Assembly: GCA_002726245.1 (NCBI GenBank)
Contig: PBSM01000145.1
Location: 1-64,000 of the forward strand
Length of the DNA: 64,000 nt
Direction: 5' to 3'
Source of the DNA: Planctomycetaceae bacterium
GTDB lineage: Bacteria; Planctomycetota; Planctomycetia; Pirellulales; Pirellulaceae
The first letter of the stretch is position 1, and every line of letters starts with the position of its first letter. Positions 345 to 37,247 of this stretch are shown here, piece after piece. A program made the translations under genes and the position numbers. The notes beneath the pieces were generated by a model. That model was not told the DNA's origin, did not search any database, and saw nothing but the letters and a program-made list of their open reading frames with translations.

Positions 345-2147
345 TCACCGCCTTCGCACCAGCAGCTTGACGTGCCCCATGAGCCCGGCGGGGCCGGCAT
401 GATTAATGACGCGGACGCTGACCTGATTGCTCGCGCCAGGTTTGATGATCTCGGAAACATCCGTCAGGCCTGTCCTCATTCCTAGCCCTTGCTTCGTGTT
501 CATCAGCGCGATGATCTCTGGGCGCAGCCCCGGTCCGGGGGAAGTGCCGGCGGAATGTCCCCCGAACGCGAGCATGATCTCGTCACGTTGCGGATCAAGG
601 TCCCCGGGCGCGTCGAACTTGATCCTGTAGATTCCCACGCCGTTCGCCTTGGTGCCTTGTGACTGCCAGCACTTCAATGTGCTAATCAGCGGCCAGCTTC
701 CAAAAGCGAAATCATTGTTTGGCCGATACCAATGCTTGTTGTATCGGATCTGAAGCTGCGTATCGAAACGGAAATGCCAATACACTGGGAGTTCAGCGGC
801 GATCCTCCAGCCGTCCTGCTTTGCTTTGCCCCAGAACGCGGTATCCTTCGCCGCCATCTGCCGGTCATGCTCGGTATAGTCAGTTAGGTCCCATTTGGGT
901 GTGGGCTTCCATGAAAGATCTTGCGGCTGGTGGGCGTCGATGTTGGCCTGCCAGTATTTTCGCATCAGGGGCGTCGGTTCGGCCATGATCCAAGGCATTT
1001 CGCCGTAAAGCCACGCGTATTTATCCGACGCCGCCAGGGCGTTGTGTGCCGCGTGTTTGTGCCGCTGGGGGTCGCGCTGGTTGGCGCGCACGTCAGTGGG
1101 ACTAAAGCGATGCTCGCCCCATCCCGCGTCCGTCCAGATGGCTGTGCAGAAGCTGATTCGCCTACGGACCAGCTCCGGGGTCGTGCTGAGGATCGGCGCC
1201 AGCCGGAGTGCCTGATCGCGGACAACCAACATGTCCTGGTAGGTCGAATCGAGATAGGTGGCCTCGCAGGCCGACACGAGCGACGCCCGTTCGTCCAAGC
1301 CGACGAGTAGTCCGTCAAAGAACGCTGGCATGAGCGCGAAGCCGGTGTCGAGCAAGCTGCCCTTTGCTTCCCTCTCCAGCTCTCTCCTCAACGCGACGCG
1401 GTAAGCGCCTTCATACAGTGACGCAGCGACCATGAGTACGATCTGCGGGTACTCCCTGGTCAACGCCTTCCCGTACTGCTCACCTCGCTGCCGCACCTTT
1501 GCGGCAACCTCGCGAAACGATCGTGGCTCGGCTTCGCCCGCAACTTTGTAGCCCTCGTCGGCATACTGTCTGTAGTAGAACGGATACTTCCAGACGCCTT
1601 TGCCGCGTCCCCCGTACTGCTCCAAATCCAGTAGCACACCCTTGAAGCCGCACTCACGGGCGAGCCTCGCGGCCAGGCCCGTATTCGCACACACCGCCTC
1701 CCAGTCCTTGTCGTTGAACCAATCCGGTACCTTGCCTTCGACCCAAAGGGTCGAGCTAGTCCATAGGAAGTTGTCCGTCAGGTGTCCCCAGTCTTTGACC
1801 GATTTGAAGGCGTCTATCTCCGGCTTAACGTCTTCGTACGTCAGCGGCGGGATTCGCCACCATTGTCCGTTCCGCAGGACGAACATCACACCGTCGATCC
1901 CTTTGTCCTGCCAGGACGCGACTTTCGCATTCAGGAACGCGGCCTTTTTTCGAGCGTCTTCGATCCCCTCAAGTTCTCCGCAGACATGCCTGATCTCCCT
2001 CGCCCCACGTAGGAGCTTCTTGCCTGCAACATTGGAAAGAGGAATCCTCCCGCCCTCGGCAGGGCTGAGCGTCTCTTCGCAAATCGATGCGGACGGCATC
2101 GATGTGACCAGCAAGCCCATTGTCAACGGGATCACACCAAGCCTCAT
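345..2147 (-). CDS. Exported TIM-barrel glycosidase-like protein with C-terminal beta-sandwich
   Basis: About 600 residues from an ATG preceded by GAGAAG seven bases upstream; an in-frame GTG five codons earlier is the alternative start. The N-terminus (MRLGVIPLTMGLLVTS...) is a signal peptide. Residues about 60-430 carry the features of glycosidase-like TIM barrels: an acidic strand (GVLLDLEQYGG), a catalytic-type region and many aromatic residues. Residues about 470-600 look like a beta-sandwich carbohydrate-binding module (VGIYRIKFDAPGDLDP). No named family was recognised. It is the last gene of a minus-strand cluster with NeuB-like and GH109-type genes, so a role in glycan breakdown in the periplasm or outside is inferred from context. 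Confidence 0.6.
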   Translation of the reverse strand: MRLGVIPLTMGLLVTSMPSASICEETLSPAEGGRIPLSNVAGKKLLRGAREIRHVCGELEGIEDARKKAAFLNAKVASWQDKGIDGVMFVLRNGQWWRIPPLTYEDVKPEIDAFKSVKDWGHLTDNFLWTSSTLWVEGKVPDWFNDKDWEAVCANTGLAARLARECGFKGVLLDLEQYGGRGKGVWKYPFYYRQYADEGYKVAGEAEPRSFREVAAKVRQRGEQYGKALTREYPQIVLMVAASLYEGAYRVALRRELEREAKGSLLDTGFALMPAFFDGLLVGLDERASLVSACEATYLDSTYQDMLVVRDQALRLAPILSTTPELVRRRISFCTAIWTDAGWGEHRFSPTDVRANQRDPQRHKHAAHNALAASDKYAWLYGEMPWIMAEPTPLMRKYWQANIDAHQPQDLSWKPTPKWDLTDYTEHDRQMAAKDTAFWGKAKQDGWRIAAELPVYWHFRFDTQLQIRYNKHWYRPNNDFAFGSWPLISTLKCWQSQGTKANGVGIYRIKFDAPGDLDPQRDEIMLAFGGHSAGTSPGPGLRPEIIALMNTKQGLGMRTGLTDVSEIIKPGASNQVSVRVINHAGPAGLMGHVKLLVRRR

Positions 2148-2195
2148 CGGTCGTCTTCTCACGACTGGTTTCCCCAGAGCAAAGGAGACAGTTTT

Positions 2196-3196
2196 CTAAT
2201 CGCTGTCGCCGGTGATCGCCTCGATAATCTCATCTGCCAGGTCTGCATGCGGCCATTTGGTCAGATGATATTTTCGTTTCTTGAGTTCCTGCGCTGCGGG
2301 CAATGCCGCCACTTGAGGACATCCTTCACGGATGCCTCCGACGCGCCATGAATCCCGCCCATCGTAATGCACGGGATGCCCTTGTGAATCAACCCAACCT
2401 TCTTCGCCAGCGGCAAGGATTCGGTGTACAGATTGCCCTGGGGCGGCACCACCGCGAGGTTCCCCGGATTGTAGAACGTGACGGAGTTCTGCGCGTGCTC
2501 GACCATGTCCTGATAGATGGCTTCAAGCCATCGCGGATCGTTGCTGGCGGGGGTAGGCAGCCAGTGGCGCGGGAAATAGACGCCGAACGAAGCGCGGGCC
2601 ACTGGCAACTCGAACGGGCGGACATCGATCTTGAGCTTCAGTTCGGTCGGCGGCCGGTTCTTGGGCATCAGCCAAATCGTGCCTTCCTGGAGTCCGCTTT
2701 TGGCATCGCTATCGGCGTGGAACGTGATCCAGAAGGCGCGTTTTTCGTTTTCACCAACCCGGTCCAATTCCTTCGATAACCGGAGCGTCGACGTCGGCGC
2801 CCAATAGCCGGGCTGGTGCCACTTGCCCTTGAAATGCTGAGGATAACGCGCATACCGCTCGACCTCGCGGATCTTGACGTCGAGATCGACATCCGTGATC
2901 AGCACGCCGACGTTTTGCGTCTCTCCTGCGATGCCGTAGATCCCGAGTTGCACGGAGATGTATTCGCCTTTAGCCATGGACACCGAGACCGCATCGACCG
3001 CGTCTTTCGGGGCGACGGTCTTGGTTTCATCGAGGCGTCGCATCGTGTTGGCAAGAAACGGCGCGTACCCCTTTTTCTTCAGCGCCGCCGGCCATTCATT
3101 CGTGGGTCTTGCTTCCGGCTCGGCCGCAAAAGACAGCGGCGCGCCTAACAGCATGGCGGCGACAACAAGACAGTGATGCGATCGTTGTTGTTTCAT
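2196..3196 (-). pseudogene. Broken GH123/DUF4091-type glycosidase: internal deletion plus frameshift
   Basis: The first frame runs from ATG 3196 to TGA 2261 (311 codons): signal peptide, a beta-sandwich N-terminal domain (residues about 30-200), then only the start of a TIM barrel (FGVYFPRHWLPTP). The end of this frame is unlike protein (KWRHCPQRRNSRNENII). A -1/+1 shift at about 2305 gives a natural-looking tail (ALPAAQELKKRKYHLTKW, ending ITGDSD at TAG 2196-2198). Proteins with this N-terminal domain normally have a full barrel of roughly 300 further residues, so the barrel appears to be lost and the remaining tail out of frame. The ATG directly follows the TGA of the upstream gene. A sequencing error could explain the shift but not the missing barrel. 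Confidence 0.6.
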
Positions 3197-4573
3197 TCAT
3201 CGTACCCTTCTCTGCTCGACTCCGACGAATGATCTGCCGCCGGCATACTTGAACAGGTCACCGGTGCCCGCGGGCAATTTGAACGTGAACGCATGGTCCT
3301 TTAGCTCGTGTCTCTCGACCTTGCCGGTTTCGCGGCTCAGTCGCTCGATCGCGGTGACCTCGTCGGTGAAAGTTAAGGTCACTTGCGTCGCCAGTCCCGC
3401 ATGGTCAACGTCTGTCGCCCGGGAGTTGATCTTGTTGGCGACCATAAAGTACTCCTCGTTGCTCGCGTCCCGGAAGAAACCGACCATGAGATGGTCCTGG
3501 AACGGGTACGTGCGCCCCGTAAGGCCTGTCAACTTGCCCGTTCGCAATGTGTCTGATTCAGCGAAACCATAAAGAGGACCCGCCCAGGTATTGTGGGTTG
3601 TCAAATTGGTATGGTAGGTACGAATGTGCCTCAACTTGAGCAAAGCCGGACCAAGCTTTGCGACCTCGGCGTTGATTCTGGCGAGAAACTCGAAGTGCTT
3701 TGTTTTGCCGATGGCCTTTTTGTCTTTATACCGTACGTATCCAGTCGTTTCGTCCGTTGAACCCCACCGCCAGTCGATGAAGCCCGTGCAACCGTATGCC
3801 AGCGCACAGAATGTGTTGGCGCGCAATGTGGAATCGCTCCGTTTCCTCCCGGAGGCACCACGGGCCACGAAAAAGGCGATGCCGCGAGCCTTGCAGAATT
3901 CGGAACTGTATCCCAGACACGCGTACATCGCCGGGTTAATGTCGAGCGTCTTGCCGCTGGACGTGTGATACGGATACCACTGATAGATCATCCCGTCAGG
4001 CCGGATCACGTCCCACATGATCTTCCATTTCGGCTGGTCCGTCATGGGCACGCAGATGAGTGACAGGAGGCGCGGATGCGCAGCGCGCATCCACTTTACC
4101 TGTTCAGCAAACGTCTTCTGGTCCTGGGGGTCATACGGTTCATCAGCAAGCTGCACACCGACAAACTTGGGATCTCCGGCGAACCACTTAACACGATGCT
4201 GGAAATCGGGGAGACCCGACCAACCGGCCCCGAGAATCATGTACTGTACCTTCGCCTTTTGCGCCGCGCGAACGCCGGGATACCACATGTGGCCGCCCGC
4301 CGACATGCTGACATCATCCAGCAGGTTCAATCCGGCTTCCCGGAACACGTCCATATCGGGATCGACGATCAGCCCGGGCTTGGCATTCTCATACCAGTGC
4401 GGCAGGTACGCCATATCGTAGGACATGACACCCAACGTGAAGGGATGCGACTGCTGCCATTTTGCGTAACGGTCCTTGAACTTGGTGTTGCTGTCCTGCG
4501 CTATTATCCGGCCGCTGCCGGCGACTAACATGGCCGCCGCAAGCAACACCGCTGACAGACTGTTTGTCCTCAT
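3197..4573 (-). CDS. Exported TIM-barrel glycoside hydrolase-like protein
   Basis: 458 residues beginning with a Sec signal peptide (MRTNSLSAVLLAAAMLVAGS). The body looks like a glycosidase (alpha/beta)8 barrel. It has a strand/acid pair typical of beta-galactosidase-like barrels (FVGVQLADEPYDPQ, about residue 140), aromatic loops (QWYPYH, FIDWRWGS) and a short C-terminal beta domain (about 380-445). No CAZy family could be assigned. The stop codon abuts the ATG of the next, broken gene, so the two were one transcript. The start has 5'-AAAGGAGA-type purines upstream (4578-4590). Likely periplasmic or extracellular; substrate unknown. Confidence 0.6.
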   Translation of the reverse strand: MRTNSLSAVLLAAAMLVAGSGRIIAQDSNTKFKDRYAKWQQSHPFTLGVMSYDMAYLPHWYENAKPGLIVDPDMDVFREAGLNLLDDVSMSAGGHMWYPGVRAAQKAKVQYMILGAGWSGLPDFQHRVKWFAGDPKFVGVQLADEPYDPQDQKTFAEQVKWMRAAHPRLLSLICVPMTDQPKWKIMWDVIRPDGMIYQWYPYHTSSGKTLDINPAMYACLGYSSEFCKARGIAFFVARGASGRKRSDSTLRANTFCALAYGCTGFIDWRWGSTDETTGYVRYKDKKAIGKTKHFEFLARINAEVAKLGPALLKLRHIRTYHTNLTTHNTWAGPLYGFAESDTLRTGKLTGLTGRTYPFQDHLMVGFFRDASNEEYFMVANKINSRATDVDHAGLATQVTLTFTDEVTAIERLSRETGKVERHELKDHAFTFKLPAGTGDLFKYAGGRSFVGVEQRRVR

Positions 4574-4641: not shown

Positions 4642-5466
4642 TTACTCAAAGTCCACCTCGTGCAACTTGACCCGCAACGCGGACAGCGCCTTCTGCTCGT
4701 CTGGAACTGGGCACTTTTCTGACGAGCCCAGCATCACTTCCAGTCGGGTAATCTGCCGCACCAACTCCCCCAGCATCTCGGGAGTCATCGCGCCGGCGTG
4801 ATCGTCGCCGGGCATGCGGGTGTGATACGTAAAGTGCTTTTCCAGAACATCGGCACCGAGTGCAACCGCAGCTAAGCACGCCTCGATACCTCGACTGTGA
4901 TCGCTGTAGCCGATCCCATACTCGGGGAACTCGTCTTTGATTGTGCGCATCGCTCGCAGGTTGACGTTAGCGTCATCCGTCGGATATTGGCTCACGCAGT
5001 GCAGCAGGTAGAGGTTCTCAATCCGCTGCAGATGTTTGACCGCCTCACGGATCTCGCCCAGCGTCGAGCCTCCCGTGGACAGATAAACCGTTTTCACCTG
5101 GTCGGCGCGCGAGTTCACATAGTCGAGCAGGTCGAGGTGGACGATCCGACTGGACGCGAGCTTGAGGGAGTCCAGACCCATCTTGTCGACCAGGAAAACC
5201 GTTGACCGCACCGTGAACGTCGAGCTGAGAAACTCGATGCCTTTCTCCTTACATAGCGCTTGCATCTCGGAGTGGACCTCGGGCGGCATTTCGACGCCTT
5301 GGAACCACTCGTGCCACTGGTGGTCTTTGCCGAATTGGTCGGCCGTGTACGTCTGGAACTTGGCGATCGTGGCCCCGTTGGCGGCGGCCTCTTCCACCAT
5401 GCCTCGACAAACGTCCCAGCAGCCGTAGTGGTTCTCGCCGATTTCCGCAATGACGATGGTCTTCAT
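4642..5466 (-). CDS. N-acetylneuraminate synthase-like (NeuB TIM-barrel domain only)
   Basis: 274 residues, no signal peptide, hence cytoplasmic. NeuB-family motifs appear in order: EIGENHYG (8-15), KFQTY (36-40), SSTFTVRS (81-88), KLASSRI (102-108), STGGST (130-135), HCVSQYPT (156-163), GYSDHS (186-191), EKHFT (209-213) and DDHAG (221-225). Known members condense phosphoenolpyruvate with N-acetylmannosamine or a related sugar to form a nonulosonic acid. Typical NeuB proteins are about 350 residues with a C-terminal antifreeze-like (SAF) domain. This one ends right after the barrel, so the SAF lid is absent. It lies between the GH109-type gene and the TIM-barrel gene, which suggests a nonulosonic or amino-sugar theme. 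It might also be a diverged aldolase-type lyase. Confidence 0.8.
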   Translation of the reverse strand: MKTIVIAEIGENHYGCWDVCRGMVEEAAANGATIAKFQTYTADQFGKDHQWHEWFQGVEMPPEVHSEMQALCKEKGIEFLSSTFTVRSTVFLVDKMGLDSLKLASSRIVHLDLLDYVNSRADQVKTVYLSTGGSTLGEIREAVKHLQRIENLYLLHCVSQYPTDDANVNLRAMRTIKDEFPEYGIGYSDHSRGIEACLAAVALGADVLEKHFTYHTRMPGDDHAGAMTPEMLGELVRQITRLEVMLGSSEKCPVPDEQKALSALRVKLHEVDFE

Positions 5467-5563: not shown

Positions 5564-6916
5564 TCATGCTCCAATGATGCCGAGGGGAGGGTTCGTTTTC
5601 CACTTGCCGCGGGTGAAGTCCGGAAACTCGACCGGGCGGCTCTTGTTGGCGACGGATCGTTCACTTAATCCCGACACCACGCTCCACGACGCCGCGTCAT
5701 AGACGTTCATGTCGGGCGGCGTGCCTGTGCGCAGGGCTTGGATCAGCCGATACAACTCCATGTAGTCCATTCCGCCATGCCCTTTCCCTTCGGCTCGTTC
5801 CAACAGCTCTTTCCAGAGGGGATGTTCATGTTCGGCCCGGTACTTTTCCGGCGACTGCCACTCGTGTCCAGCGCCGTCCCGTTCAATGTGAATCCTGTCC
5901 GGGTAGCCTTGGAAAATGCCCTTAGTTCCCTGGACCGTGTTGATGCGACTATAGGGCCGGGGCAACTGTGTGTCGTGACCCACCATGATCGTGCAACCAT
6001 TGACGGTGCGGATCATGCTGAAGTTGACGTCCCCGAGTGCATATTGGTGCTTGGCCAGCGGATGGTCCGCACCGAATCGCTTGGCATAGTGCAGGTTCAA
6101 TCCGCGCGACTTGCTACTCATCGAGACCAGGAAATCGAAGCGATCGCCGCGGTCGATGTTCATGCATTGAGCCACCGGTCCCAGTCCGTGCGTCGGGTAG
6201 AGGTTGCCGTTGCGGCGGAGCATGTGTTCCAGCCGCCACTCGATGCTCGGGCCCGGACCAAGCAACTCGCGGTCTTCGCGCAACTCGTGCATGTATCCCG
6301 CTTCGCCGTGAATCAGCTCGCCGAACAGGCCCTTGCGAACCATGTTCAGGACCATCATTTCCGTGCGCCCGTAACAGCAGTTCTCCAACATAACGCAATG
6401 CCGATCGTGTTTCTCCGACGTTTCGACCAACTGCCAGCACTCGTCGATGGTCACTGCGGCGGGCACTTCCGTGGCGGCGTGTTTGCCTGCCTTCATCGCG
6501 GCCACGCAAACCGGCACGTGCCACCTCCAGGGTGTGGCGGTGACGACCAGGTCCAAGTCTTCCCGTTCGCAAAGCTGTTTGAAATCGGTCTCGCCGGGGA
6601 AATAACCGGTTGGTTTGGGCTGCCCGGCGTCCTGCACCCAACGCTGGGCTTTTGCAACGCGCTCTTCGATGAGGTCACAAACCGCGAGAATCTCGACTCC
6701 CTCGAGTTCCAGCAACAACCGAACGAGGCTCGAGCCGCGTCCCCCGATCCCGACAAAACCGATCCGCACGGGATCGATGGGAGCTGCCTTTACGTGTGGC
6801 GCCGCACTCGATTTTGGCTCCTCAGCACTGGAGGCCGGCACGCCGCCAATCGCAAGCCCGGCACCAACGGTCGCCCCCAACTTCAAAACGTTCCTTCGAT
6901 CAAACTCGATCGCCAT
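5564..6916 (-). CDS. GH109-type alpha-N-acetylgalactosaminidase (Gfo/Idh/MocA fold, exported)
   Basis: 450 residues from the ATG at 6916, which has a strong AAAGGAG seven bases upstream; longer upstream starts are less likely. A twin-arginine signal (FDRRNVLKLGA, 5-15) leads into a Rossmann domain with GIGGRG (56-61) and the acidic end of strand 2 (CDL, 80-82). The C-terminal half carries GH109 hallmarks: ENCCYGR (178-184), YPTHGLGP (240-247), NIDRGDRFD and a final FTRGKWKTNPPLG. GH109 enzymes remove terminal alpha-GalNAc using tightly bound NAD+ in an oxidation/elimination mechanism. It heads the minus-strand cluster with the NeuB-like gene. A plain Gfo/Idh dehydrogenase is the alternative. 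Confidence 0.82.
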   Translation of the reverse strand: MAIEFDRRNVLKLGATVGAGLAIGGVPASSAEEPKSSAAPHVKAAPIDPVRIGFVGIGGRGSSLVRLLLELEGVEILAVCDLIEERVAKAQRWVQDAGQPKPTGYFPGETDFKQLCEREDLDLVVTATPWRWHVPVCVAAMKAGKHAATEVPAAVTIDECWQLVETSEKHDRHCVMLENCCYGRTEMMVLNMVRKGLFGELIHGEAGYMHELREDRELLGPGPSIEWRLEHMLRRNGNLYPTHGLGPVAQCMNIDRGDRFDFLVSMSSKSRGLNLHYAKRFGADHPLAKHQYALGDVNFSMIRTVNGCTIMVGHDTQLPRPYSRINTVQGTKGIFQGYPDRIHIERDGAGHEWQSPEKYRAEHEHPLWKELLERAEGKGHGGMDYMELYRLIQALRTGTPPDMNVYDAASWSVVSGLSERSVANKSRPVEFPDFTRGKWKTNPPLGIIGA

Positions 6917-7436
6917 CGTCTTCTCCTTTGTCATTGGTCGAGTGCTCGATACGATAGCCTCAAAGGCCACCGCTGTAAAACATCGTGTAGAGATCTTTGT
7001 GTTGTGGCACTCCAGCGCGAGTCCTTTGATGAGCGTTCACGGGATTCGGTCCTTGCGGAAAGAGCCTACGGACACACCAGCGGTGATTCTAACTCAGAGC
7101 AGGCGTTTCGCAATTCACTACAACTACTCTCCGCCCCGCCGTCTGCGGTGGAGGGCGGCGAGGTGATCCAAGCGGTTGACCTTGAATCTTCTGGACTATC
7201 TGAGTCGCCGCGGTGCCTCCTCGCCGGAGTACCACCAAGCCGAGTCGTCCGTGAACCAGTTCTTTCTGATAGGGTAGGTGGGCCGGCCTCGTGTCGCTCT
7301 GAATACTCTCAACCTCAAGACGGGAGAGACCCGTAGGACCGTCAAGTGCGCGCGATGCGGATCGTTTCCTCAGATCGCGCCAAGCTATGGCCGGTAGTTC
7401 GACTCCGATCATCGCGAGTGACTTCGCCTGGTTCGG
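6917..7436. other. Intergenic region, no supported gene
   Basis: This lies upstream of the GH109-type start and downstream of the WD40 gene's stop. It should hold the promoter of the 6916-345 cluster, but no convincing -35/-10 pair was seen. A short plus-strand frame at 7167-7277 (about 36 codons, ending EYHQAESSVNQFFLIG) has protein-like composition and may be a gene remnant. It has no start or partner and was not called. Confidence 0.5.
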
Positions 7437-11810: not shown

Positions 11811-14800
11811 ATGAAACATCAAAGAGCCCGGTTGATTTTCTTTGCAATACTGACCGTCTTTGTCGGGGCATCAGCACTGACCGCGGACGAACCGCGTGCG
11901 ATGACGCTAGTCGATCTGCTGAACATCCCGTCGCTCAGCAGCCCTCGTCTTTCGCCTGATGGCAGGCAGTTGCTCTACGTCCTGGAAAAAGCGGATTGGG
12001 AAGCCAACAAGCAAATCGGCCACATTTGGCGCACGGATGTGCCCGCCGGCGAGGCGGTTCAATTGACAAACGGAGCGCACGGCGAAAGCAGTCCTCGCTG
12101 GTCTCCGGATGGCCGCTGGGTCGCGTTTCTCGCTAACCGCGGCGAGGATGATGTCGAAGACAAAAAAGACCAGATCTTCCTCATCAGCAACCGCGGCGGT
12201 GAAGCTCAAGCGCTGACGAATCGGCCGAGCGGTGCGAAGGGCATTTCCTGGTCGCCGGACGGCAAGTTCATCTACTTCATTTCGCCTGATCCGAAATCCC
12301 CCGAACAACTCGAGCGCGAGAAGCTGAAAGACGACGTGTTTGCCTTCGACGAGAACTACCAACACGTTCACCTCTGGAAGACTGCGATTGCCGACAAGGC
12401 CGAGACGCGGATTACGCAGGGCGACTATTCCGTCCTCGACTATCAACTCTCAAACGACGGGATGAAGGTCGCGTATCATCGATCGGTCAATCCATTGTTC
12501 GGTGACTCGGATCAAGGCGAGGTTTGGGTCATGCACGCCGACGGAACCGGCGCCGTGCAGCTCACCCGAAACCACGTCCCTGAGACGTCGGCAAGACTCT
12601 CGCCGGACAACAAGCACGTCGTGTTTCTGGCCAAGGCGAACCAGAAGTTCGAATACTACTACAATGCCAACCTGTTCCTCGTGCCGGCAACCGGAGGCGA
12701 CGCAAAGCGACTACTGCCCGCCTTGCCGTATGAGATCTTAGCCGCCGATTGGTCCGAGGATGGACAGAGCATTTTCTTGACCGCGAACAGGGGAGTGCAA
12801 GTCGAACTGTTCCAACTGGATGTCGAATCGGCGAAACTGGAGCAATTGACCAGCGGCAATCATGCCATTCGCTCGTGGCATTATTGTGCCGCGGCCGACA
12901 GGCACGTGATGTCAATTGATCGGCCGGAAAACCCAGGCGACGTGCAGATGCTTGCAAGTCGTTCGGCCGCTGACGACAATCCCATGCCACGACAAGTCAC
13001 ACATGTGTTCGATGAAGTCACCGAACGCTTTCGGCTGCCCAGGCAGGAACGGACCACTTGGCGCGGCGCCGACGGCGTCGAAGTCGAGGGGTTGCTCTTC
13101 TATCCGCTCGATTATCAAAAGGGAAAGCGCTATCCGCTGGTCGTGCAGGCGCACGGCGGGCCAGCACATTCGGACCGGTTCGGATTCGGTGCGTGGCGCG
13201 ACTACATTCCGATTCTGACCGCTCGCGGGTACGCCATCATCAAGCCAAACTATCGCGGCAGCACCGGCTACGGAAATACATTCTTGCGAGACATGGTCGG
13301 CCACTACTTCAAGAATGCCCATCTAGACGTGATGGCGGGCGTCGACCACTTGATTCAAGCCGGAATCGCCGATGGCGACCGCATGGCGATGATGGGCTGG
13401 AGCGGCGGCGGCCACATGACCAACAAGATCATCACGTTCACGGATCGTTTCAAGGCGGCGTCTTCCGGAGCGGGCGCCGTGAATTGGATTTCGATGTATG
13501 GCCAAAGTGACGTGCGAATCTATCGGACACCCTGGTTCGGCGGCACTCCCTGGCAAGAGCAAGCTCCGATCGACGTGTTTTGGGAACACTCGCCGCTCAA
13601 GCACATTGCCAAAGTGAAGACGCCGACGATCGTCCTGGTTGGCGAAAAAGACGTGCGCGTGCCGATGCCGCAGTCCGTGGAACTCTACCGGGCGTTGAAA
13701 TCCAACGGCGTTGCCACCCACCTCTACGTCGCCCCGCGGGTGCCGCACGGCTGGAATGAACTTCGCCACCGACTGTTCAAAATGAATGTGGAACTTGATT
13801 GGTTCGAGAAACACGTCCGCGACAGAAAGTACACGTGGGAGAAGGCGCCCACGGTTGAATCCGGAAAACTTCGCGCAGGCGGGATCACGGTGACCGCTTT
13901 GAATGCGACGGAGACCGCTGCCGTCGAGCTTGACAACGGCACCAAGGTTCGCGTTGCGAAGCGAGTCGCGGTTAACGTCGATCCGAAGCGCGACCTACAC
14001 GGCCCGTGCGTGATCCGAGCGGCGAATGGGGATCTGTTGTTGAGCCATCAAGATTCCAACAAGCACGGCGGCGGAGATGGGTTTGCCCGACAGTGGCGCA
14101 GCACCGACAACGGATTTAACTGGAAAGACGAAGGGCCCGTTGCCGACTGGCGAAAGCGGAACATCGACTCGCTGTTTGGTGAATACGGACTCGCCGCAGA
14201 TGGCAGGCTCGTGATGATCGTTCAACGCCGCAAGGTGCTGGGAGGGAATCTCGGAATTGTCGGATCATGGCTACAAACGAGTACCGATCACGGAAGGACA
14301 TGGAAGGAGATCGGCCCCGTGGATGGCAGTCACGAATATGCCGTGATGTTCGGCCGCAGCATTATCCGTCACAAGGAAGTCATGTACGTCGGAGCCTGGT
14401 CGCGCCTGGGAAACTCGTTGTACATCAGCGAAGACAACGGGCTGACCTGGAAGAAACGCAGCGTTATCTTTCCCACAGACTATCCGGACTTCGCCAATTT
14501 GAAGAACGCCGGACCTCCGTTCTATCCCCATGTCGTTTTCTGCCCGGACGGCTCGCTGTTGGCCATGACTTATCACACACCGCCAAAGAACCATTGCTAC
14601 TCGCGCCGCAGCCACGACAACGGCAAGACCTGGGGCCCGATCGTCAAGGAAACGGGGCTCACGCTGTGGGCACCGCGCATGAATCGAATGGACGAGGACA
14701 CGCTGATCGTCACCGGAAGAGATATCCAGGAACGGGCAGCGGTGGCATGGTTTTCAACGGACAACGGCAAGAGTTGGGGGAACAAGTTGATACTCGACAA

Positions 14801-14972
14801 ACCGAAGTTCGCCGGAAGTTACGCCTACACCGATTCGATCGGCGCGCGCGACGGACAGTTTTGGGTTTTCACCAGCAGCCCTCAATCCGCGGGGAAGGGT
14901 GACATCGTTGGTGTGTTGCTCGAAGTGACCAGAACATTGGGCGGGTCAGCAACGATCGGGGGCTCGTTATAG
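11811..14972 (+). CDS. S9 prolyl-oligopeptidase-type peptidase fused to a sialidase-like Asp-box propeller
   Basis: 1053 residues. A signal peptide (1-25) is followed by a TolB/WD40-like propeller (about 40-400; repeated SPDG motifs) and an alpha/beta-hydrolase domain (about 410-680). The catalytic triad is visible: Ser531 in GWSGGG, Asp614 in GEKDVRVP and His646 in RVPHGW. S9 enzymes normally end near DWFEKHVRDRKYTWEKAP (about 685). Here the frame continues through a 70-residue linker into a second module with five Asp boxes, STDNGFNW (764) to STDNGKSW (982). That module resembles exo-sialidase propellers. Peptidase and glycan-binding or -cleaving activities are therefore on one exported chain. 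No stop or shift is seen at the joint. The last residues overlap the convergent DMT transporter gene. Confidence 0.82.
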   Translation: MKHQRARLIFFAILTVFVGASALTADEPRAMTLVDLLNIPSLSSPRLSPDGRQLLYVLEKADWEANKQIGHIWRTDVPAGEAVQLTNGAHGESSPRWSPDGRWVAFLANRGEDDVEDKKDQIFLISNRGGEAQALTNRPSGAKGISWSPDGKFIYFISPDPKSPEQLEREKLKDDVFAFDENYQHVHLWKTAIADKAETRITQGDYSVLDYQLSNDGMKVAYHRSVNPLFGDSDQGEVWVMHADGTGAVQLTRNHVPETSARLSPDNKHVVFLAKANQKFEYYYNANLFLVPATGGDAKRLLPALPYEILAADWSEDGQSIFLTANRGVQVELFQLDVESAKLEQLTSGNHAIRSWHYCAAADRHVMSIDRPENPGDVQMLASRSAADDNPMPRQVTHVFDEVTERFRLPRQERTTWRGADGVEVEGLLFYPLDYQKGKRYPLVVQAHGGPAHSDRFGFGAWRDYIPILTARGYAIIKPNYRGSTGYGNTFLRDMVGHYFKNAHLDVMAGVDHLIQAGIADGDRMAMMGWSGGGHMTNKIITFTDRFKAASSGAGAVNWISMYGQSDVRIYRTPWFGGTPWQEQAPIDVFWEHSPLKHIAKVKTPTIVLVGEKDVRVPMPQSVELYRALKSNGVATHLYVAPRVPHGWNELRHRLFKMNVELDWFEKHVRDRKYTWEKAPTVESGKLRAGGITVTALNATETAAVELDNGTKVRVAKRVAVNVDPKRDLHGPCVIRAANGDLLLSHQDSNKHGGGDGFARQWRSTDNGFNWKDEGPVADWRKRNIDSLFGEYGLAADGRLVMIVQRRKVLGGNLGIVGSWLQTSTDHGRTWKEIGPVDGSHEYAVMFGRSIIRHKEVMYVGAWSRLGNSLYISEDNGLTWKKRSVIFPTDYPDFANLKNAGPPFYPHVVFCPDGSLLAMTYHTPPKNHCYSRRSHDNGKTWGPIVKETGLTLWAPRMNRMDEDTLIVTGRDIQERAAVAWFSTDNGKSWGNKLILDKPKFAGSYAYTDSIGARDGQFWVFTSSPQSAGKGDIVGVLLEVTRTLGGSATIGGSL

Positions 14973-15871: not shown

Positions 15872-16208
15872 TAGTGAGGGCCGGGGATGATCGGACAGGT
15901 CGCCGGGCGGTTGTGAGGGTGTGAAACGGGCAGGAGGGTGGTTGTACCAGATGTGACGTATTGGGACAAACGTGAGGTTTCATATGAGACATAGGGAGAA
16001 CATTGGGAGAATTGGGTCTCTGTAGGGTTTTCTGAGCGATCAGTGTGATAGCTGTATTTCCCCTGAAAACGGGGGATTCGATGTTCGTTGGGTTCGATTC
16101 CCATCATGCGGACACGAAGTCCGTGTGCGTCCGCCGTCGGTGTTGACGCAGCTTAACGTACGGGTTGGGGAGCAATCAAACACGAACTACCGCCAGGAGC
16201 AAAGCACG
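15872..16208. other. Intergenic region between divergent genes, with a tRNA T-arm-like remnant
   Basis: No gene is supported. At about 16087-16106 the plus strand reads TTGGGTTCGATTCCCAT, the pattern of a tRNA T-stem-loop (GTTCGATTC). A possible anticodon-like hairpin (TCCCC/GGGGA) lies 35 bases upstream. No acceptor-stem partner for the bases after the T-arm is present upstream, so a complete tRNA is excluded. A small hairpin CGGAC/GTCCG follows at 16109-16123. Promoters for both neighbours should lie here, but none could be defined. Confidence 0.45.
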
Positions 16209-19076
16209 ATGAGATGCCCACTGCGATGCGTGCCGACGACGGCGATCATGACGTTGTTCGCGCTGACACCAGCGCACGGCCAGGAAGCACGCGAGCTGAA
16301 CATCACAATCGGCAGGTCGCTGCAGCTTGGCGATGTGAGCAAGGCTGGAGAGGTTGACTTAGTCGTCTCGCCAACCGGCGCGGTTGCAGCGTTTGTGCCC
16401 ACAACGCGTTGGCCCGGCCGCGAAGGACGGTTGTGGATGGCATACCGCGTCTCTGCCGACGGCGGTAAGACGTGGTCTGGTCAGTTTGAAGCGCCGATGC
16501 TCGATCGGTCGGCCGCGGTGGTTGGTGCCGGCCGGACGGCGGGTGAGAACCCCAGGGGCGCCGTCAAGCGAGCCGGTCTTTGGGAGCACATGATCCGTCC
16601 GCCGACGTGGTTTGCGGCTAGATTTGCGCGGTTCGGCAATGACCTGCTGAGCTATCAAGTCGAAGCATTGCGGGCCGACGTGCCGGAAGCGGTTGTGCTT
16701 GCGAAGGACGAGCACGGCGTCGCGCATCGCACCGAAAAGGTCTTGCCGCTCTTTGATCGCGGTCAAATGATTCGGTTAAGCGAAAGTGAACTGCTGCTGG
16801 CGATGCACGGCCGGTTCAAAGGCGATACGAAGTCGCGGGCATTTCTCATCCGTTCGCTCGACGGCGGGCGTCTGTGGCGAACCTTCGGAACGATCGGCCA
16901 CCACGCAGACGATCCTGACCCGGAGTTGCCAGGAAAGTTCGCGGGCTACAGCGAGCCCAGCATCGCCAAACTGCCAAGCGGGAGGCTGCTGGCGGTGATG
17001 CGGGCGGACGATTCGGATAAGCCGCCATTCAAACCGCTCTACGTCAGTTGGTCGGATGATCGGGGTGCCAACTGGTCGAGGCCCCTGCCAACTTCGCCGC
17101 ATCTTTCCGGTACGCCGACGCTCGTTGTGCTGGATGGCGGGGTGGTGGCTTGTGCGCACGCACAGCCGGCCTTGCGAGTCGCATTCAGCATGGACGAAGG
17201 TCGAACCTGGAGCACAGACCAGGCGATTTCCGGCACGTCAAAGCAAACCAACGGCCGAATCGACATGGTCAAGGTTGCTCCAAACAAGCTGCTGCTGGCC
17301 TCCATCGCGCGCGGCGGGACTCGCGTTTTCCCGATCACCGTGGAGCCAGGGGCAGCGGGGCGGTCGGGAGACCGCCCCGAAACAAGGAAGGAGAAAGCGG
17401 GAGACCGTGAGATTCTCAAGATCACGCGCGGCAAGCCAGTCAAGTTGGGACCGTATGGTTATGTCAACAACGCGACGCTGGGCGTTTCGCCCACGGGTGT
17501 AATTGCGGCTGGTGTCGCCATCAAGCACTGGCCCGGCATGCATGAGCAGTGGATCGCTTATCGCGTTTCAAAAGACAGCGGAAAGACGTGGACCGAGCCG
17601 ATGCAGGGGTTCGGCCCGGTGCGATCCGGCGTCGAAGCCTGGGCGACGTTGCGTGGCGGTGGCGCGCTTCAGGTTGGCGGCTGGGGCATGCCCGCCGCCC
17701 GAAATCGCGAAGGTTGGTGGGAGACGATCCTGACGCGCTTCAGCGACGACATGTTGCACTATCAGATCGAACCGATCCGAGTGTACATGCCGGACGCCGC
17801 GTTGGTGATCAGTGAACCGTCACCGCTTTTCATGTCCGGCCCGCAATTCGGAACGGGCAAGGTCATTCAACTTCCCAACGGCGATCTCCTGGCTCCGATG
17901 CAGGGAAGGTTCAAAGGGGATACAAAGCACCGCGCGATTGTCAGCCGCTCGGTCGATCGCGGGCGAACGTGGCGGTACCACGGCACGATCGCTTACGACC
18001 CTGTGGACTCGCACCCGGACCTACCCGGCCAATACCTCGGCCACGCCGAAGCGAGTATCGCCCTGTTGCCCAACGGGCAATTGCTGAGCGTGATGCGCAC
18101 GCAGTACTCGCACTTGCCCGGCGAGTATCGCCCGCTGCACGTGTGCTGGTCGGATGATTGGGGAAAGACGTGGACCAAGCCCGTGCCGACGACTCCGCAC
18201 TTGATGAACATCCATCCGAATCTGATCGTATTGGACAACGGCGTGGTGGCGTGCGTTTATGGCCGTCCGGGGTTTCACGCGGCCTTCAGCCTGGACAACG
18301 GCCGTACTTGGCAGGACCGCATCAGCTTCTCGCATCGTCCAGAACCCAAGATCACCGGCCAAGTGCATGCCAACAAGATCGGCCCCAACAAGCTGATGGT
18401 CATCGGCGGCGTAGGTACGGGCGGCACCCAGGTCTTTCCGGTGACCGTCGAGCGGTTGAAAGCATCAACGGCGTCGGTGGCGTTGACTGGCACGGTCCTG
18501 GATGAGAAAGGCGATCCAATTGCCGGTGCTTTGGTCGAGCGCGGCTCCAACCGCTACGCGGCCGACGACTGGCTCGAACATGAATCGGACCTGGATCCCT
18601 GGAAAAGCGGTCCCCTGACCGTCGGCAATCCCAAGCTGGCGTTCCGGTCGATTCAACCAGGTGACAATCATCCAACGGCGCGGACGGACGATAAAGGGCG
18701 CTTCCGTTTTGATGCCGTCAGCCTGGACGAATACGTGCTTACTGTGGAAGCGGACGGATACGCACCACAGCACCGGCACGTCAAGGTTGGGCCGCAGCCG
18801 GAACTATACGAGTTCTCGCTGAAGCCTGGACGACTCGTCCGCGGACGGGTCGTTGATTCGCAGGGCAAGCCGATCAGCGGCGTGTGCGTTGTGTTGAATC
18901 GCTGGCACTGCCACACGGATCGACGTGGATACTATCACTGGTCCGCCGAAGCGCCGCTGGCGGAGCAAGTAGCCGTGAAGGCTCACAAGCGGTACACCGG
19001 CCCGCACAAGGCATTTAAGGGCACCATTCCGTTTTCGCAACTCGAACGTCAGCCGATTACTCTGCAGAACCAATAA
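16209..19076 (+). CDS. Tandem-duplicated sialidase-like protein with C-terminal carboxypeptidase-regulatory-like repeats
   Basis: 955 residues from ATG 16209, which has AGGAG nine bases upstream; a longer in-frame start at 16125 lacks a signal peptide. After the signal peptide come two homologous Asp-box propellers (about 25-415 and 425-800). Each has four boxes in the same order, for example SADGGKTW/SKDSGKTW and SLDGGRLW/SVDRGRTW, and shared blocks such as GRFKGDTK. The linker (GAAGRSGDRPETRKEKAGDR) is built on a palindrome at 17357-17378. The C-terminus (about 805-955) has two carboxypeptidase-regulatory-like beta-sandwiches (LTGTVLDEKGDPIAGALVER; RGRVVDSQGKPISGVCVV). An exported glycan-active or glycan-binding protein is likely; activity is unproven. 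Confidence 0.78.
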   Translation: MRCPLRCVPTTAIMTLFALTPAHGQEARELNITIGRSLQLGDVSKAGEVDLVVSPTGAVAAFVPTTRWPGREGRLWMAYRVSADGGKTWSGQFEAPMLDRSAAVVGAGRTAGENPRGAVKRAGLWEHMIRPPTWFAARFARFGNDLLSYQVEALRADVPEAVVLAKDEHGVAHRTEKVLPLFDRGQMIRLSESELLLAMHGRFKGDTKSRAFLIRSLDGGRLWRTFGTIGHHADDPDPELPGKFAGYSEPSIAKLPSGRLLAVMRADDSDKPPFKPLYVSWSDDRGANWSRPLPTSPHLSGTPTLVVLDGGVVACAHAQPALRVAFSMDEGRTWSTDQAISGTSKQTNGRIDMVKVAPNKLLLASIARGGTRVFPITVEPGAAGRSGDRPETRKEKAGDREILKITRGKPVKLGPYGYVNNATLGVSPTGVIAAGVAIKHWPGMHEQWIAYRVSKDSGKTWTEPMQGFGPVRSGVEAWATLRGGGALQVGGWGMPAARNREGWWETILTRFSDDMLHYQIEPIRVYMPDAALVISEPSPLFMSGPQFGTGKVIQLPNGDLLAPMQGRFKGDTKHRAIVSRSVDRGRTWRYHGTIAYDPVDSHPDLPGQYLGHAEASIALLPNGQLLSVMRTQYSHLPGEYRPLHVCWSDDWGKTWTKPVPTTPHLMNIHPNLIVLDNGVVACVYGRPGFHAAFSLDNGRTWQDRISFSHRPEPKITGQVHANKIGPNKLMVIGGVGTGGTQVFPVTVERLKASTASVALTGTVLDEKGDPIAGALVERGSNRYAADDWLEHESDLDPWKSGPLTVGNPKLAFRSIQPGDNHPTARTDDKGRFRFDAVSLDEYVLTVEADGYAPQHRHVKVGPQPELYEFSLKPGRLVRGRVVDSQGKPISGVCVVLNRWHCHTDRRGYYHWSAEAPLAEQVAVKAHKRYTGPHKAFKGTIPFSQLERQPITLQNQ
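17357..17378. repeat. Palindrome GGGGCGGT-CGGGAG-ACCGCCCC at the joint of two duplicated domains
   Basis: Eight-base perfect arms around a six-base loop, translated in frame as part of the linker between the two propellers of the duplicated sialidase-like gene. Its position exactly between the duplicates suggests a link with the duplication or insertion at a tolerant site. Confidence 0.6.
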
Positions 19077-19123: not shown

Positions 19124-21484
19124 TCACTTTTGATGTCCATCTTGTCGGTTTTGCAGTTCCACAACTCGCACCAAGTGCTTTTCGTTGTTGTCCTGGTTCG
19201 ACGCCCCCTTCTCGCCTGTCGAGAATAGAACCAAGGGTGTATCGACCTCGTTGTGGCCCGTAGGACGTTCCAGGGTGACGCCCGCGTGCGGCAAGGTCGA
19301 ATCGGGCGGGAACAGCGGCAAGGAACGGAATCGCTCGCCGCGGTCGTCGGAACAGAGCAGCACGACCTCGCCGCGCACACCGCCACGAACCGAGGAACCG
19401 CGAAGTCCCGCCAAGTAGATTCGGTCGCGCGTGTCTATTGTGATCGTGCCGCTGCCGCTGGTCGGCTTCATTTCCGGTTGATTCAATCTCGACGCCGGAT
19501 CGAATGAGCGCCACTGTTTGCCATCGTGATGATGGATCATCAGACCACACGACGATTCGGCGGTCGCCAGGCAGACCCACGGGCGATTTTTGGAGTCGCA
19601 GACGATGTTCTTTACCTTCAACGGCTGATCTGATGCTTCAAAGAACACGTCCGTGGACGGCGAAACCGGAAGATCGAGTTCCCTGCCGTCGGCAAGTCTC
19701 CAGGAGCTTCCAGCATCATCAGACATCAGATGACCGGCAACAAGCGCTGAGCCGTTGTAATAGATGTCGTAGGCCAGATGTAGCGAGTTGTCTCGCGCAA
19801 TGGTGAGCGACGCGTGGTAAGCCGTGTAGTCATTCCAATTGGGCGGGCATGTGGCCAAAGCGACGGGATCACTCCAACTGCCGCCTTTAGTCTTCCGCTG
19901 ATAGAGCAACCGGAACGGATGCTTGGGGCGCGGGCCGCCGCGATAGACGATGTGAAGCGTGTCGTCACGATCACACACCAGACTTGGGTAAGTCGGGTAC
20001 GAACCGAAACGTCCCAACTTTATCCACTGACTCGTATCGTTCGGCTTGGCAGAGCGGAAGTGACGAAACTGCGACTCGGCATGCGGACCGAACAAGATGT
20101 GAAGGTGGCCCTGGCTGTCGCAGGTCAGTGCCGGGCCGCCGTGATTGTCGAGCCCGCTGCCGAGATGCACGGGGCGGCTCCAGTTGCCAGTCTTCCGGTC
20201 CCGCGTCGCAATCATCGTGCGTGATCCGCTGTCCAGCCACGCGACATGAGTGGTCGCGTCGAACGTCACGATCTTGTTCGCGTTGGCGTATCGAGTCGCA
20301 CGCGTCGATCCGTGTGCGGACAACAGTTTGACGTCGCCGACCGTGAGCCGCCAAGAAGACTGGCTTTGGGGAAGAGCCGGGCTTCTTAGAGCGGTCGTCT
20401 CCGCATCCAATCGGATCTTCGCCAAATAGATGCTCGGTCGCTCCTCGTGAGACGAATAGTAACTCATCCAGAGCAAGCCATCGTGCCAGACCATCCCGGC
20501 ATAACTGGTGTCGCCTCCACTGGGCAATTCGAGCACGGGCTCGTAATGATCTCTGGTCATCGCGGCCAGCACGGTCTTCTTGAACTGGAAGCCTTCAGGT
20601 CGATGATATCGCCGGCCGCTGCCCCACAGGCTTCCACCGACTTCCACAAAGTTCGGACCGCCAATCGTACAAACGTGAGGCGTCCCGGGAGGGTGATCCT
20701 TCGCGTGCCGGACTTTATGCCAGTTCCAATCGGTGTACGGTGGCTGGCTGGTACCAATCCATGCCTGACGCACCAGTGCCAACATGCTGTTGTCACGGAG
20801 CACGCGGACCGTGATCTCGGTTGGCATGGTCGGGTGCTTTCCCTCCCGTCCTTGATGATAGTCGTCAGGGATGGCGAACCGCGTGACCTGTTGCCAGTGG
20901 ACGCCATCCTTGCTTGTGAACAGAATGGCCCGGTGTGGGTTCAGCAGTTTCGAGACGCCGTAGGCCCGGTCTTCGTGCCACGAGACGCGCCACATCCAGT
21001 GACCATCGGTCAGATGTTCGCCGTCGGCTTTGAACTGCATCGTTTCCAGAGGTCTCCATTCTTTCCCATCGCTCGAAAACGCAACTCGCGAGTCACGAGT
21101 TTTCATTTCTTGGTCCTCGTAGAGACACGCTCCCGCGATGACCATCAACCGGCCGTCCGGAGTCACGGACAGCTTGGGATCACGAAGATCGCGGTCCTCG
21201 ACCGCAAACAAACCCTCGGACCGCCACTCGCGGCCGTCGTCCGAGACAATGACTCGAACCTTGCCGTTCTCGCCGTGCTCGTGCGCGTCCGACTCGCGGA
21301 ATGTGCAATACCAGCGATCGCCAAACCTCGCCAAATCCGTGAACGAGTTGTACTTGGCCTGGTCCCAGATCTTCTGCACCGAAACGAGCTGCGGCTGCTC
21401 GGACGCCAACTCGCCGGCGCAGGCGGCGAGTGCCCACGCCATCAGACCGATCCCAATCGCAGCTTTCGTCGTTCGCGTTGACAT
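19124..21484 (-). CDS. Two-propeller exported protein: sialidase-like domain plus BNR_4-type domain
   Basis: 786 residues from ATG 21484; a TTG 20 codons earlier is possible but would bury the signal. The signal (AIGIGLMAWALAACAGE) contains LAAC, a plausible lipobox, so this may be an outer-surface lipoprotein. Residues about 35-380 form an Asp-box propeller (SDDGREW, SSDGKEW, SKDGVHW). Residues about 400-770 match BNR_4-type proteins related to polysaccharide lyases (SGLDNHGGPALTCDSQGHLH, PSLVCDRDDTLHIVYRGG). It is last in a minus-strand operon with the phosphoesterase and a second sialidase-like gene. A lyase or hydrolase on an acidic glycan is inferred. Confidence 0.72.
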   Translation of the reverse strand: MSTRTTKAAIGIGLMAWALAACAGELASEQPQLVSVQKIWDQAKYNSFTDLARFGDRWYCTFRESDAHEHGENGKVRVIVSDDGREWRSEGLFAVEDRDLRDPKLSVTPDGRLMVIAGACLYEDQEMKTRDSRVAFSSDGKEWRPLETMQFKADGEHLTDGHWMWRVSWHEDRAYGVSKLLNPHRAILFTSKDGVHWQQVTRFAIPDDYHQGREGKHPTMPTEITVRVLRDNSMLALVRQAWIGTSQPPYTDWNWHKVRHAKDHPPGTPHVCTIGGPNFVEVGGSLWGSGRRYHRPEGFQFKKTVLAAMTRDHYEPVLELPSGGDTSYAGMVWHDGLLWMSYYSSHEERPSIYLAKIRLDAETTALRSPALPQSQSSWRLTVGDVKLLSAHGSTRATRYANANKIVTFDATTHVAWLDSGSRTMIATRDRKTGNWSRPVHLGSGLDNHGGPALTCDSQGHLHILFGPHAESQFRHFRSAKPNDTSQWIKLGRFGSYPTYPSLVCDRDDTLHIVYRGGPRPKHPFRLLYQRKTKGGSWSDPVALATCPPNWNDYTAYHASLTIARDNSLHLAYDIYYNGSALVAGHLMSDDAGSSWRLADGRELDLPVSPSTDVFFEASDQPLKVKNIVCDSKNRPWVCLATAESSCGLMIHHHDGKQWRSFDPASRLNQPEMKPTSGSGTITIDTRDRIYLAGLRGSSVRGGVRGEVVLLCSDDRGERFRSLPLFPPDSTLPHAGVTLERPTGHNEVDTPLVLFSTGEKGASNQDNNEKHLVRVVELQNRQDGHQK

Positions 21485-21540
21485 GGACTTTCGCTCACTC
21501 TGGACTAAATACGTGATAGGACGGCGGACGACCAAGTTAC

Positions 21541-22848
21541 TCAAGCGCTGATGGGCAACAGCTCGATGTTTGTGCGTGCCTTGTTTAGCTGGAAACGGAT
21601 TACGTACACCCGGTTGGGAGCCTTGCCGCTCTGGCAGTAAGAAACCAGAATCGACTCGTCATCGAGCACTAACCCGCCAGGATACCCGTAACAGGATGTA
21701 TCAAGCGGTATGTCTTTGCTCCACGTTCGACCGTCGTCCTTGCTGATCCAGACCCGCAGGCTGCCCCAGGTCGCGACTGTCACTAGCGTGCCGTCTCGGA
21801 GTACAAAGATCTGCGGTGCCTTGAACTTCGGCCGGGGGACCAGTTTGGTCGGCGATTCGGTCCATGTGGCCCCCTTGTCTTTGGAATACAGCACACCGCC
21901 GTCCGGACGAGTGACCATGATGAGCCGGCCGTCTCTCAACTCGGCGATCGCCGGCTCGTCAACAGGCTTGTCCATTTGACGACGAATCACGGAAACCACC
22001 TTCCACGTCTTTCCGGAATCGTCAGATCGGTGCACGGCCCCAAAGAGCCCGCTAGGACTGTTGCAATACGTCGCCCACAGGATGCCGTCATCAGCCAGTT
22101 GGATTGATCGACCATGGGCTCGTTCATACGTAGCCCCGCCGGGAGGCTCGATCCAGATGGGTTCCGACCACGTCTTTCCATTGTCGCCGGAGCGAACGAC
22201 AAGCTGCTGCGTATTCAGCCCGCGAATGTCCTTTTCGAATCCCCGCGGCGCTTGCGGATATCCGTACCAGGACGCCTGAACATTGACGAAGCACAGCACC
22301 GTTCCATCGCGACACGTGAAGAGTGCGTCGGGCCGGTCGTCGAGCCGGTGATCGATCACGGTGGCCGGCTTGGACCAGGTTCTTCCATTGTCGGTGGACC
22401 GACAGACCATGGAGCGTCCGCCGGTGGGAGCTACGTGATCGACCGGCCAGCCTTCGGAGGCATATTGCTTTTTCAGATCGGGATGAAACTGTCTCGGCGA
22501 TGCGAAGGACGCGTGCCAGTAACCGGCCGAATGCGCCAGCAGAAGATCGCCGTTGGGCATCCGCTCGATGGCTTCGGCCCAGCCAATGAAATCTCCAAGT
22601 CCGGGAAACCGGTCGGGCCGGTTGTGGTCGAACCCGGTCACACAGATGCGTGCCTCCTCGGCTGACAGCTTTTTCGGTGCAGCCTTCGAATCGCGCTGGT
22701 CGCGATCATCGCTCCATGCCGAAATCGGAATCAAGGCCGTGCTCGTAGCGGCCAGGCCGAAGCTGCCCGTGATGGAGAGCCAGTCGCGCCGTGAGAGTTC
22801 CAGGTGATTCATCATCGGCTGCCGTTGCCTATGCGGGGACCTTTTCAT
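21541..22848 (-). CDS. Sialidase-like Asp-box propeller, Tat-exported
   Basis: 435 residues. A twin-arginine signal (LELSRRDWLSITGSFGLAAT) is followed by a single propeller with five Asp boxes: STDNGRTW, SGDNGKTW, SDDSGKTW, SKDKGATW and SKDDGRTW. The usual sialidase RIP motif was not seen near the N-terminus, so hydrolysis of sialosides is uncertain. The gene begins seven bases after the stop of the metallophosphoesterase gene and is followed 56 bases later by the two-propeller gene, so the three are an operon. Confidence 0.75.
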   Translation of the reverse strand: MKRSPHRQRQPMMNHLELSRRDWLSITGSFGLAATSTALIPISAWSDDRDQRDSKAAPKKLSAEEARICVTGFDHNRPDRFPGLGDFIGWAEAIERMPNGDLLLAHSAGYWHASFASPRQFHPDLKKQYASEGWPVDHVAPTGGRSMVCRSTDNGRTWSKPATVIDHRLDDRPDALFTCRDGTVLCFVNVQASWYGYPQAPRGFEKDIRGLNTQQLVVRSGDNGKTWSEPIWIEPPGGATYERAHGRSIQLADDGILWATYCNSPSGLFGAVHRSDDSGKTWKVVSVIRRQMDKPVDEPAIAELRDGRLIMVTRPDGGVLYSKDKGATWTESPTKLVPRPKFKAPQIFVLRDGTLVTVATWGSLRVWISKDDGRTWSKDIPLDTSCYGYPGGLVLDDESILVSYCQSGKAPNRVYVIRFQLNKARTNIELLPISA

Positions 22849-37181: not shown

Positions 37182-37247
37182 TCGAATGCTCCTAGAAGAT
37201 CGTGTGTCGTGCGGGCCAAGAACCATGCGTTTCATCAAGTTGGGTGG

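What the first reader, a model, noticed from the sequence alone, without database searches (positions are those of the whole stretch)
11811..14972. S9 peptidase with intact triad fused to a sialidase-like propeller
One uninterrupted frame carries Ser531/Asp614/His646 of a prolyl-oligopeptidase-type peptidase and, past the usual end of that family, a propeller with five Asp boxes. Proteases and sialidase-like enzymes normally occur as separate chains. A combined enzyme could act on glycoproteins such as mucins, where glycans shield the peptide. I know of no described example of this architecture, but I could not search.
Basis: partly seen in the sequence, partly recalled or inferred. Interest (0 to 1): 0.6.

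Follow-up and report, generated by a model that had tools for sequence, protein, structure and literature searches.

The report
Peptidase fused to sialidase-fold propeller
One gene in a planctomycete draft genome joins a normal S9 serine peptidase to a complete sialidase-shaped module that elsewhere is a separate protein; the join looks real but was found in only this genome, and the second module lacks most of the residues that make a true sialidase work.

Summary
Window 11811-14972 is one open frame (1053 aa): signal peptide, an S9 peptidase with Ser531/Asp614/His646, a ~20-residue low-confidence linker, and a complete six-bladed propeller with five Asp boxes. The S9 half is 55-65% identical to stand-alone ~680-aa peptidases, mostly of Acidobacteriota, which stop near the joint. 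The propeller half is 71% identical to a stand-alone 382-aa protein of another planctomycete. So two complete proteins were joined at a natural domain boundary. Both halves have the window's codon usage and planctomycete-type genes flank the gene, which argues against an assembly chimera; reads could not be checked. No second example turned up in about 1,000 sampled planctomycete and acidobacterial genomes; no same-genus genome was held. A new two-domain combination of known parts, known from one genome.

The parts
11811..14972 (+). whole frame, 1053 aa, S9 peptidase plus sialidase-fold propeller
11811..11885 (+). probable N-terminal signal peptide (MKHQRARLIFFAILTVFVGASALTA)
   Evidence: sequence inspection; helix 6-19 in the model
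11892..13010 (+). N-terminal beta-propeller of the S9 peptidase (PD40 repeats)
13023..13850 (+). S9 catalytic alpha/beta-hydrolase domain; Ser531 codon 13401-13403, Asp614 13650-13652, His646 13746-13748
13851..13916 (+). linker, residues 681-702, pLDDT under 50 from 683 to 702; the fusion joint
13917..14939 (+). complete six-bladed sialidase-fold propeller; Asp boxes at residues 764, 824, 873, 934, 982 (codons from 14100, 14280, 14427, 14610, 14754)

Best explanation
A real gene fusion. The gene of a secreted S9 oligopeptidase, of a subfamily mainly found in Acidobacteriota and probably gained by horizontal transfer, became joined in frame to a gene for a secreted planctomycete propeller protein, whose signal peptide was lost or overwritten in the joint. 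The product is exported once, by the peptidase's signal peptide. The S9 half most likely trims short peptides by the usual Ser-Asp-His chemistry behind its gating propeller. The second propeller, on a flexible linker, most likely serves as a glycan- or ligand-recognition module (or acts on a sugar other than an ordinary sialoside), holding the peptidase near glycosylated material. Shown: the continuous frame, both complete domains, the boundary, the stand-alone relatives, the altered sialidase site. Inferred: export, transfer, peptide trimming, ligand binding.
For: Intact triad and S9 domain. S9 relatives at 55-65% end close to residue 680. The propeller relative at 71% in G282 is a separate 382-aa protein with its own hydrophobic N-terminus, and it aligns from just behind the linker. 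The S9 half lies with the acidobacterial/gemmatimonad sequences, support 0.96. GC3 0.710 and 0.714 for the two halves and codon likelihood within the range of the other window genes. Propeller model pLDDT 84; GH33 folds at Z 33-36 over more than 300 residues. Linker 683-702 has low confidence in the full-length model. C-terminal additions to S9 peptidases recur: several planctomycete and acidobacterial S9 chains carry an FGE-sulfatase-like domain.
Against: Only one genome, a draft of 356 contigs, has the fusion, and no same-genus genome was held to confirm it. Reads could not be mapped. No ligand or substrate of the propeller family is known. Nothing shows that the two halves need each other, or that the propeller has been under selection since the joining.
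Confidence: 0.6

Rival explanations
1. Assembly artefact: two separate genes of one or two planctomycetes were joined by misassembly of the draft genome.
For: Draft of 356 contigs with a single occurrence; each half exists alone elsewhere.
Against: The join is in frame, at a domain boundary, with the second signal peptide gone; both halves share GC3 and codon usage with the window; planctomycete-type genes lie on both sides, so a foreign S9 gene would need two false joins.
Confidence: 0.12
2. A working bifunctional glycopeptidase: the propeller removes a terminal sugar (sialic acid or another nonulosonic acid) and the peptidase then cuts the bared peptide.
For: Sialidase fold at Z about 35; the sialidase Tyr is kept as Y1006 and a set of polar residues (H730, Q747, D748 and others) is shared with the 71% and 36% relatives.
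Against: Arg1, Asp, Glu and Arg2 of GH33 are all replaced; S9 enzymes exclude long peptides (PMC3827171).
Confidence: 0.1
3. A neutral, recent read-through: the propeller is a passenger on a working peptidase and does nothing for it.
For: Singleton distribution; flexible linker and low overall pTM of 0.65.
Against: The propeller frame and its family-specific residues are intact over 360 residues at 30% divergence from G282, though that divergence may be older than the fusion.
Confidence: 0.18

Closest known systems
Stand-alone S9 peptidases of Acidobacteriota/Gemmatimonadota (L061-L073; nearest solved relative by sequence 8wt1)
   Same: Same subfamily over residues 1-680, 55-65% identity, intact triad; 8wt1 E 1e-71
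   Different: They end close to residue 680 and carry no second propeller
G282 stand-alone BNR_2 propeller (L120:12128-13270)
   Same: 71% identical over nearly the whole propeller
   Different: Own signal peptide, separate gene; no S9 gene noticed among the larger ORFs of the 18 kb fetched around it
S9 peptidase with C-terminal FGE-sulfatase-like domain (L115, L128, L130, and by sequence L141-L148)
   Same: S9 peptidase with an extra C-terminal domain in the same phyla; formylglycine-generating sulfatase is listed with bacterial POPs in PMC4522959
   Different: The added domain is a different one, about 225 aa
GH33 sialidases (1EUR, BTSA 4BBW)
   Same: Six-bladed fold, Asp boxes, Tyr
   Different: Arg1, Asp, Glu, Arg2 not present
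Subtilisin-BNR chain NP_824495.1 (PMC2605481)
   Same: A serine protease and BNR repeats in one chain
   Different: Family S8, not S9

Membership tests
Peptidase family S9 (PF00326) | alpha/beta-hydrolase domain above the Pfam cut-off | tested here: met
   150.2 bits against 22.6
Peptidase family S9 (PF00326) | Ser-Asp-His triad in that order | tested here: met
   S531, D614, H646, conserved in the alignment
Peptidase family S9 (PF00326) | N-terminal beta-propeller | tested here: met
   PD40 repeats and strand pattern
Peptidase family S9 (PF00326) | peptidase activity on short peptides | not testable with these tools
   needs expression and assay
Dipeptidyl-peptidase Dpp5 (NF053518) | score above the equivalog cut-off | tested here: not met
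   222 bits against 900
BNR_2 repeat-like domain (PF13088) | score above cut-off, Asp boxes | tested here: met
   59.8 bits against 31.4; five boxes
GH33 sialidase | six-bladed propeller fold | tested here: met
   Z 33-36 to GH33 structures over more than 300 residues, 13-21% identity
GH33 sialidase | catalytic Arg1, Asp, Glu, Arg2 at the family positions | tested here: not met
   H730/G731, Q747, Y905, Y921 by profile mapping to 4BBW
GH33 sialidase | nucleophilic Tyr | tested here: met
   Y1006, by its column in A1 and its distance behind the fifth Asp box
GH33 sialidase | third Arg of the triad | tested here: inconclusive
   an Arg of GRDIQER (from 968) lies in the right blade, register not fixed

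The most novel reading that the evidence does not exclude
The propeller belongs to a sialidase-fold family with its own active site (H730, Q747, D748, Y905, Y921, Y1006) acting on a sugar not yet assigned, and the fusion is a two-step glycopeptide enzyme.
Probability: 0.1. Interest if true: 0.55.

Novelty: new variant of a known kind. Interest (0 to 1): 0.27.

Why it matters
It adds a sialidase-fold module to the domains found appended to S9 peptidases and points to a small planctomycete propeller family whose presumed active site differs from GH33. If the two halves cooperate it would be a natural single-chain design for working on glycopeptides; as a single unconfirmed case it is mainly a lead, and a caution against reading 'BNR' as 'sialidase'.

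Tried and rejected
Search for other S9+BNR chains: long-frame S9 hits from planctomycetes and Acidobacteriota were fetched and their C-terminal tails read; tails were short, of the FGE-sulfatase type or similar length, or in one case (L076) led into another hydrolase-like chain. Frames of about 1,100 aa hit weakly by the propeller in Acidobacteriota were not followed further. Synteny between the window and G282: only paralogues at 25-44% identity besides the propeller itself. Literature: no paper in the library with S9 family peptidase, sialidase and fusion together; a search for sialidase and peptidase domains in one chain gave nothing of this kind. A dN/dS comparison with G282 was started, the locus file was not found under that name, and it was not pursued.

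Full report
Observation. The frame 11811-14972 encodes 1053 residues without a stop. Pfam finds Peptidase_S9 at 467-670 (E 7.6e-44), PD40 repeats in the N-terminal part and BNR_2 at 861-1023 (E 3.5e-16), each above its cut-off.

The two halves have different stand-alone relatives. The S9 half (1-680) matches, at 55-65% identity over its length, peptidases of Acidobacteriota and a Gemmatimonadetes genome and of one other planctomycete, G810; over the catalytic domain about twenty acidobacterial matches reach 66-79%. Relatives whose ends were read stop within about 30 residues of position 680. Other planctomycete S9 peptidases are mostly near 30-35% identical over their length. In a tree of 21 sequences the S9 half groups with the acidobacterial and gemmatimonad sequences (support 0.96), which suggests transfer but rests on few sequences.

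The propeller half matches one protein closely: a stand-alone 382-aa protein of G282, same class but outside the window's order, 71% identical, with its own hydrophobic N-terminus. A second relative in G032, 35% identical, is also stand-alone. In the alignment the G282 protein begins to match just behind the linker. So the fusion joins a whole peptidase to a whole propeller, with the inner signal peptide lost or overwritten.

Is it an assembly error? It cannot be excluded without reads. Against it: the join is in frame at a domain boundary; GC3 is 0.710 in the S9 half and 0.714 in the propeller, and codon likelihoods (-1.046, -1.097) lie within those of 31 window genes (mean -1.071, sd 0.070); and planctomycete-type genes lie on both sides (DUF1549/DUF1553 upstream; further BNR genes and DUF1592, DUF1552 and DUF1501 genes downstream).

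Is it found elsewhere? Not in 98 relatives, 297 genomes of the class, 297 of the acidobacterial phylum or 392 of the planctomycete phylum; these sets overlap, roughly 1,000 distinct genomes by their handles. The searches would miss fusions whose propeller is under about 25% identical, and only the best few candidates of each genome were scored. No genome of the same genus was held. Several long-frame S9 proteins that were fetched carried instead a C-terminal domain of about 225 aa resembling FGE-sulfatase, an association already listed for bacterial POPs (PMC4522959). The main text of that survey, which counts 105 bacterial architectures, does not mention BNR or sialidase; its supplementary tables were not read. 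A subtilisin-BNR chain is listed in PMC2605481.

What the propeller is. The model (pLDDT 84, pTM 0.87) is a propeller that covers the sialidase fold from end to end; the best solved match is 5hx0, a protein of unknown function (Z 38.9), then GH33 sialidases at Z 33-36 with about 17% identity. Through the profile of 21 relatives aligned with the BTSA structure sequence, the GH33 Arg1, Asp, Glu and Arg2 positions hold H730/G731, Q747, Y905 and Y921; the Tyr position is kept as Y1006 (which residues are catalytic in GH33 is established knowledge of the family, not a tool result). The same residues are present in the 71% relative, so this is a family trait and not damage to this copy. An ordinary sialidase is therefore unlikely; a binding module or an enzyme for another sugar remains possible.

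How it works. The N-terminus looks like a signal peptide, so the protein is probably exported (inference from sequence). Oligopeptidase B acts on peptides up to about 30 residues because longer ones prevent domain closure, and the authors argue that this holds for the family (PMC3827171). Trimming of short (glyco)peptides is the likely activity. In the full-length model the linker 683-702 has pLDDT under 50 and overall pTM is 0.65, which fits two independently folded parts on a tether; the propeller part of that model rests on a single relative and is less certain than the separate model. The role of the second propeller as a ligand-recognition part is inference.

Verdict. The fusion is as described and probably real, made of known parts, in one genome; the mucin hypothesis is not supported by the propeller's residues or by the usual S9 size limit.

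Noticed in passing
L115:814-3630, L128:1370-4381, L130:1428-4238; tails of L141-L148: S9 peptidases of several planctomycetes and acidobacteria carry a C-terminal FGE-sulfatase-like (SUMF1) domain of about 225 aa (Pfam hits for L128 and L130 above cut-off, L115 below); recurrent, unlike the window fusion.
   Followed up: partly
window 4642-5466 (-): NeuB-family (nonulosonic acid synthase) gene about 6 kb upstream of the fusion, next to a GH109-like oxidoreductase gene (5564-6970).
   Followed up: no
window 16125-38567: Row of sialidase-like paralogues: BNR_2 protein with a carboxypeptidase-regulatory domain (16125-19076), BNR_4-containing 806-aa protein (19124-21544), BNR_2 genes at 21541-22848, 33458-35065 and 35964-37238.
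   Followed up: no
window 345-4573 (-): Three neighbouring ORFs without a significant Pfam match (only weak GH94 and GH123_N hints, below cut-off).
   Followed up: no
window 14882-14972: The 3' end of the fusion gene overlaps the 3' end of a convergent EamA transporter gene by 91 bases.
   Followed up: no
L069:1764-15840: Four S9 peptidase genes in a row in one acidobacterial contig.
   Followed up: no
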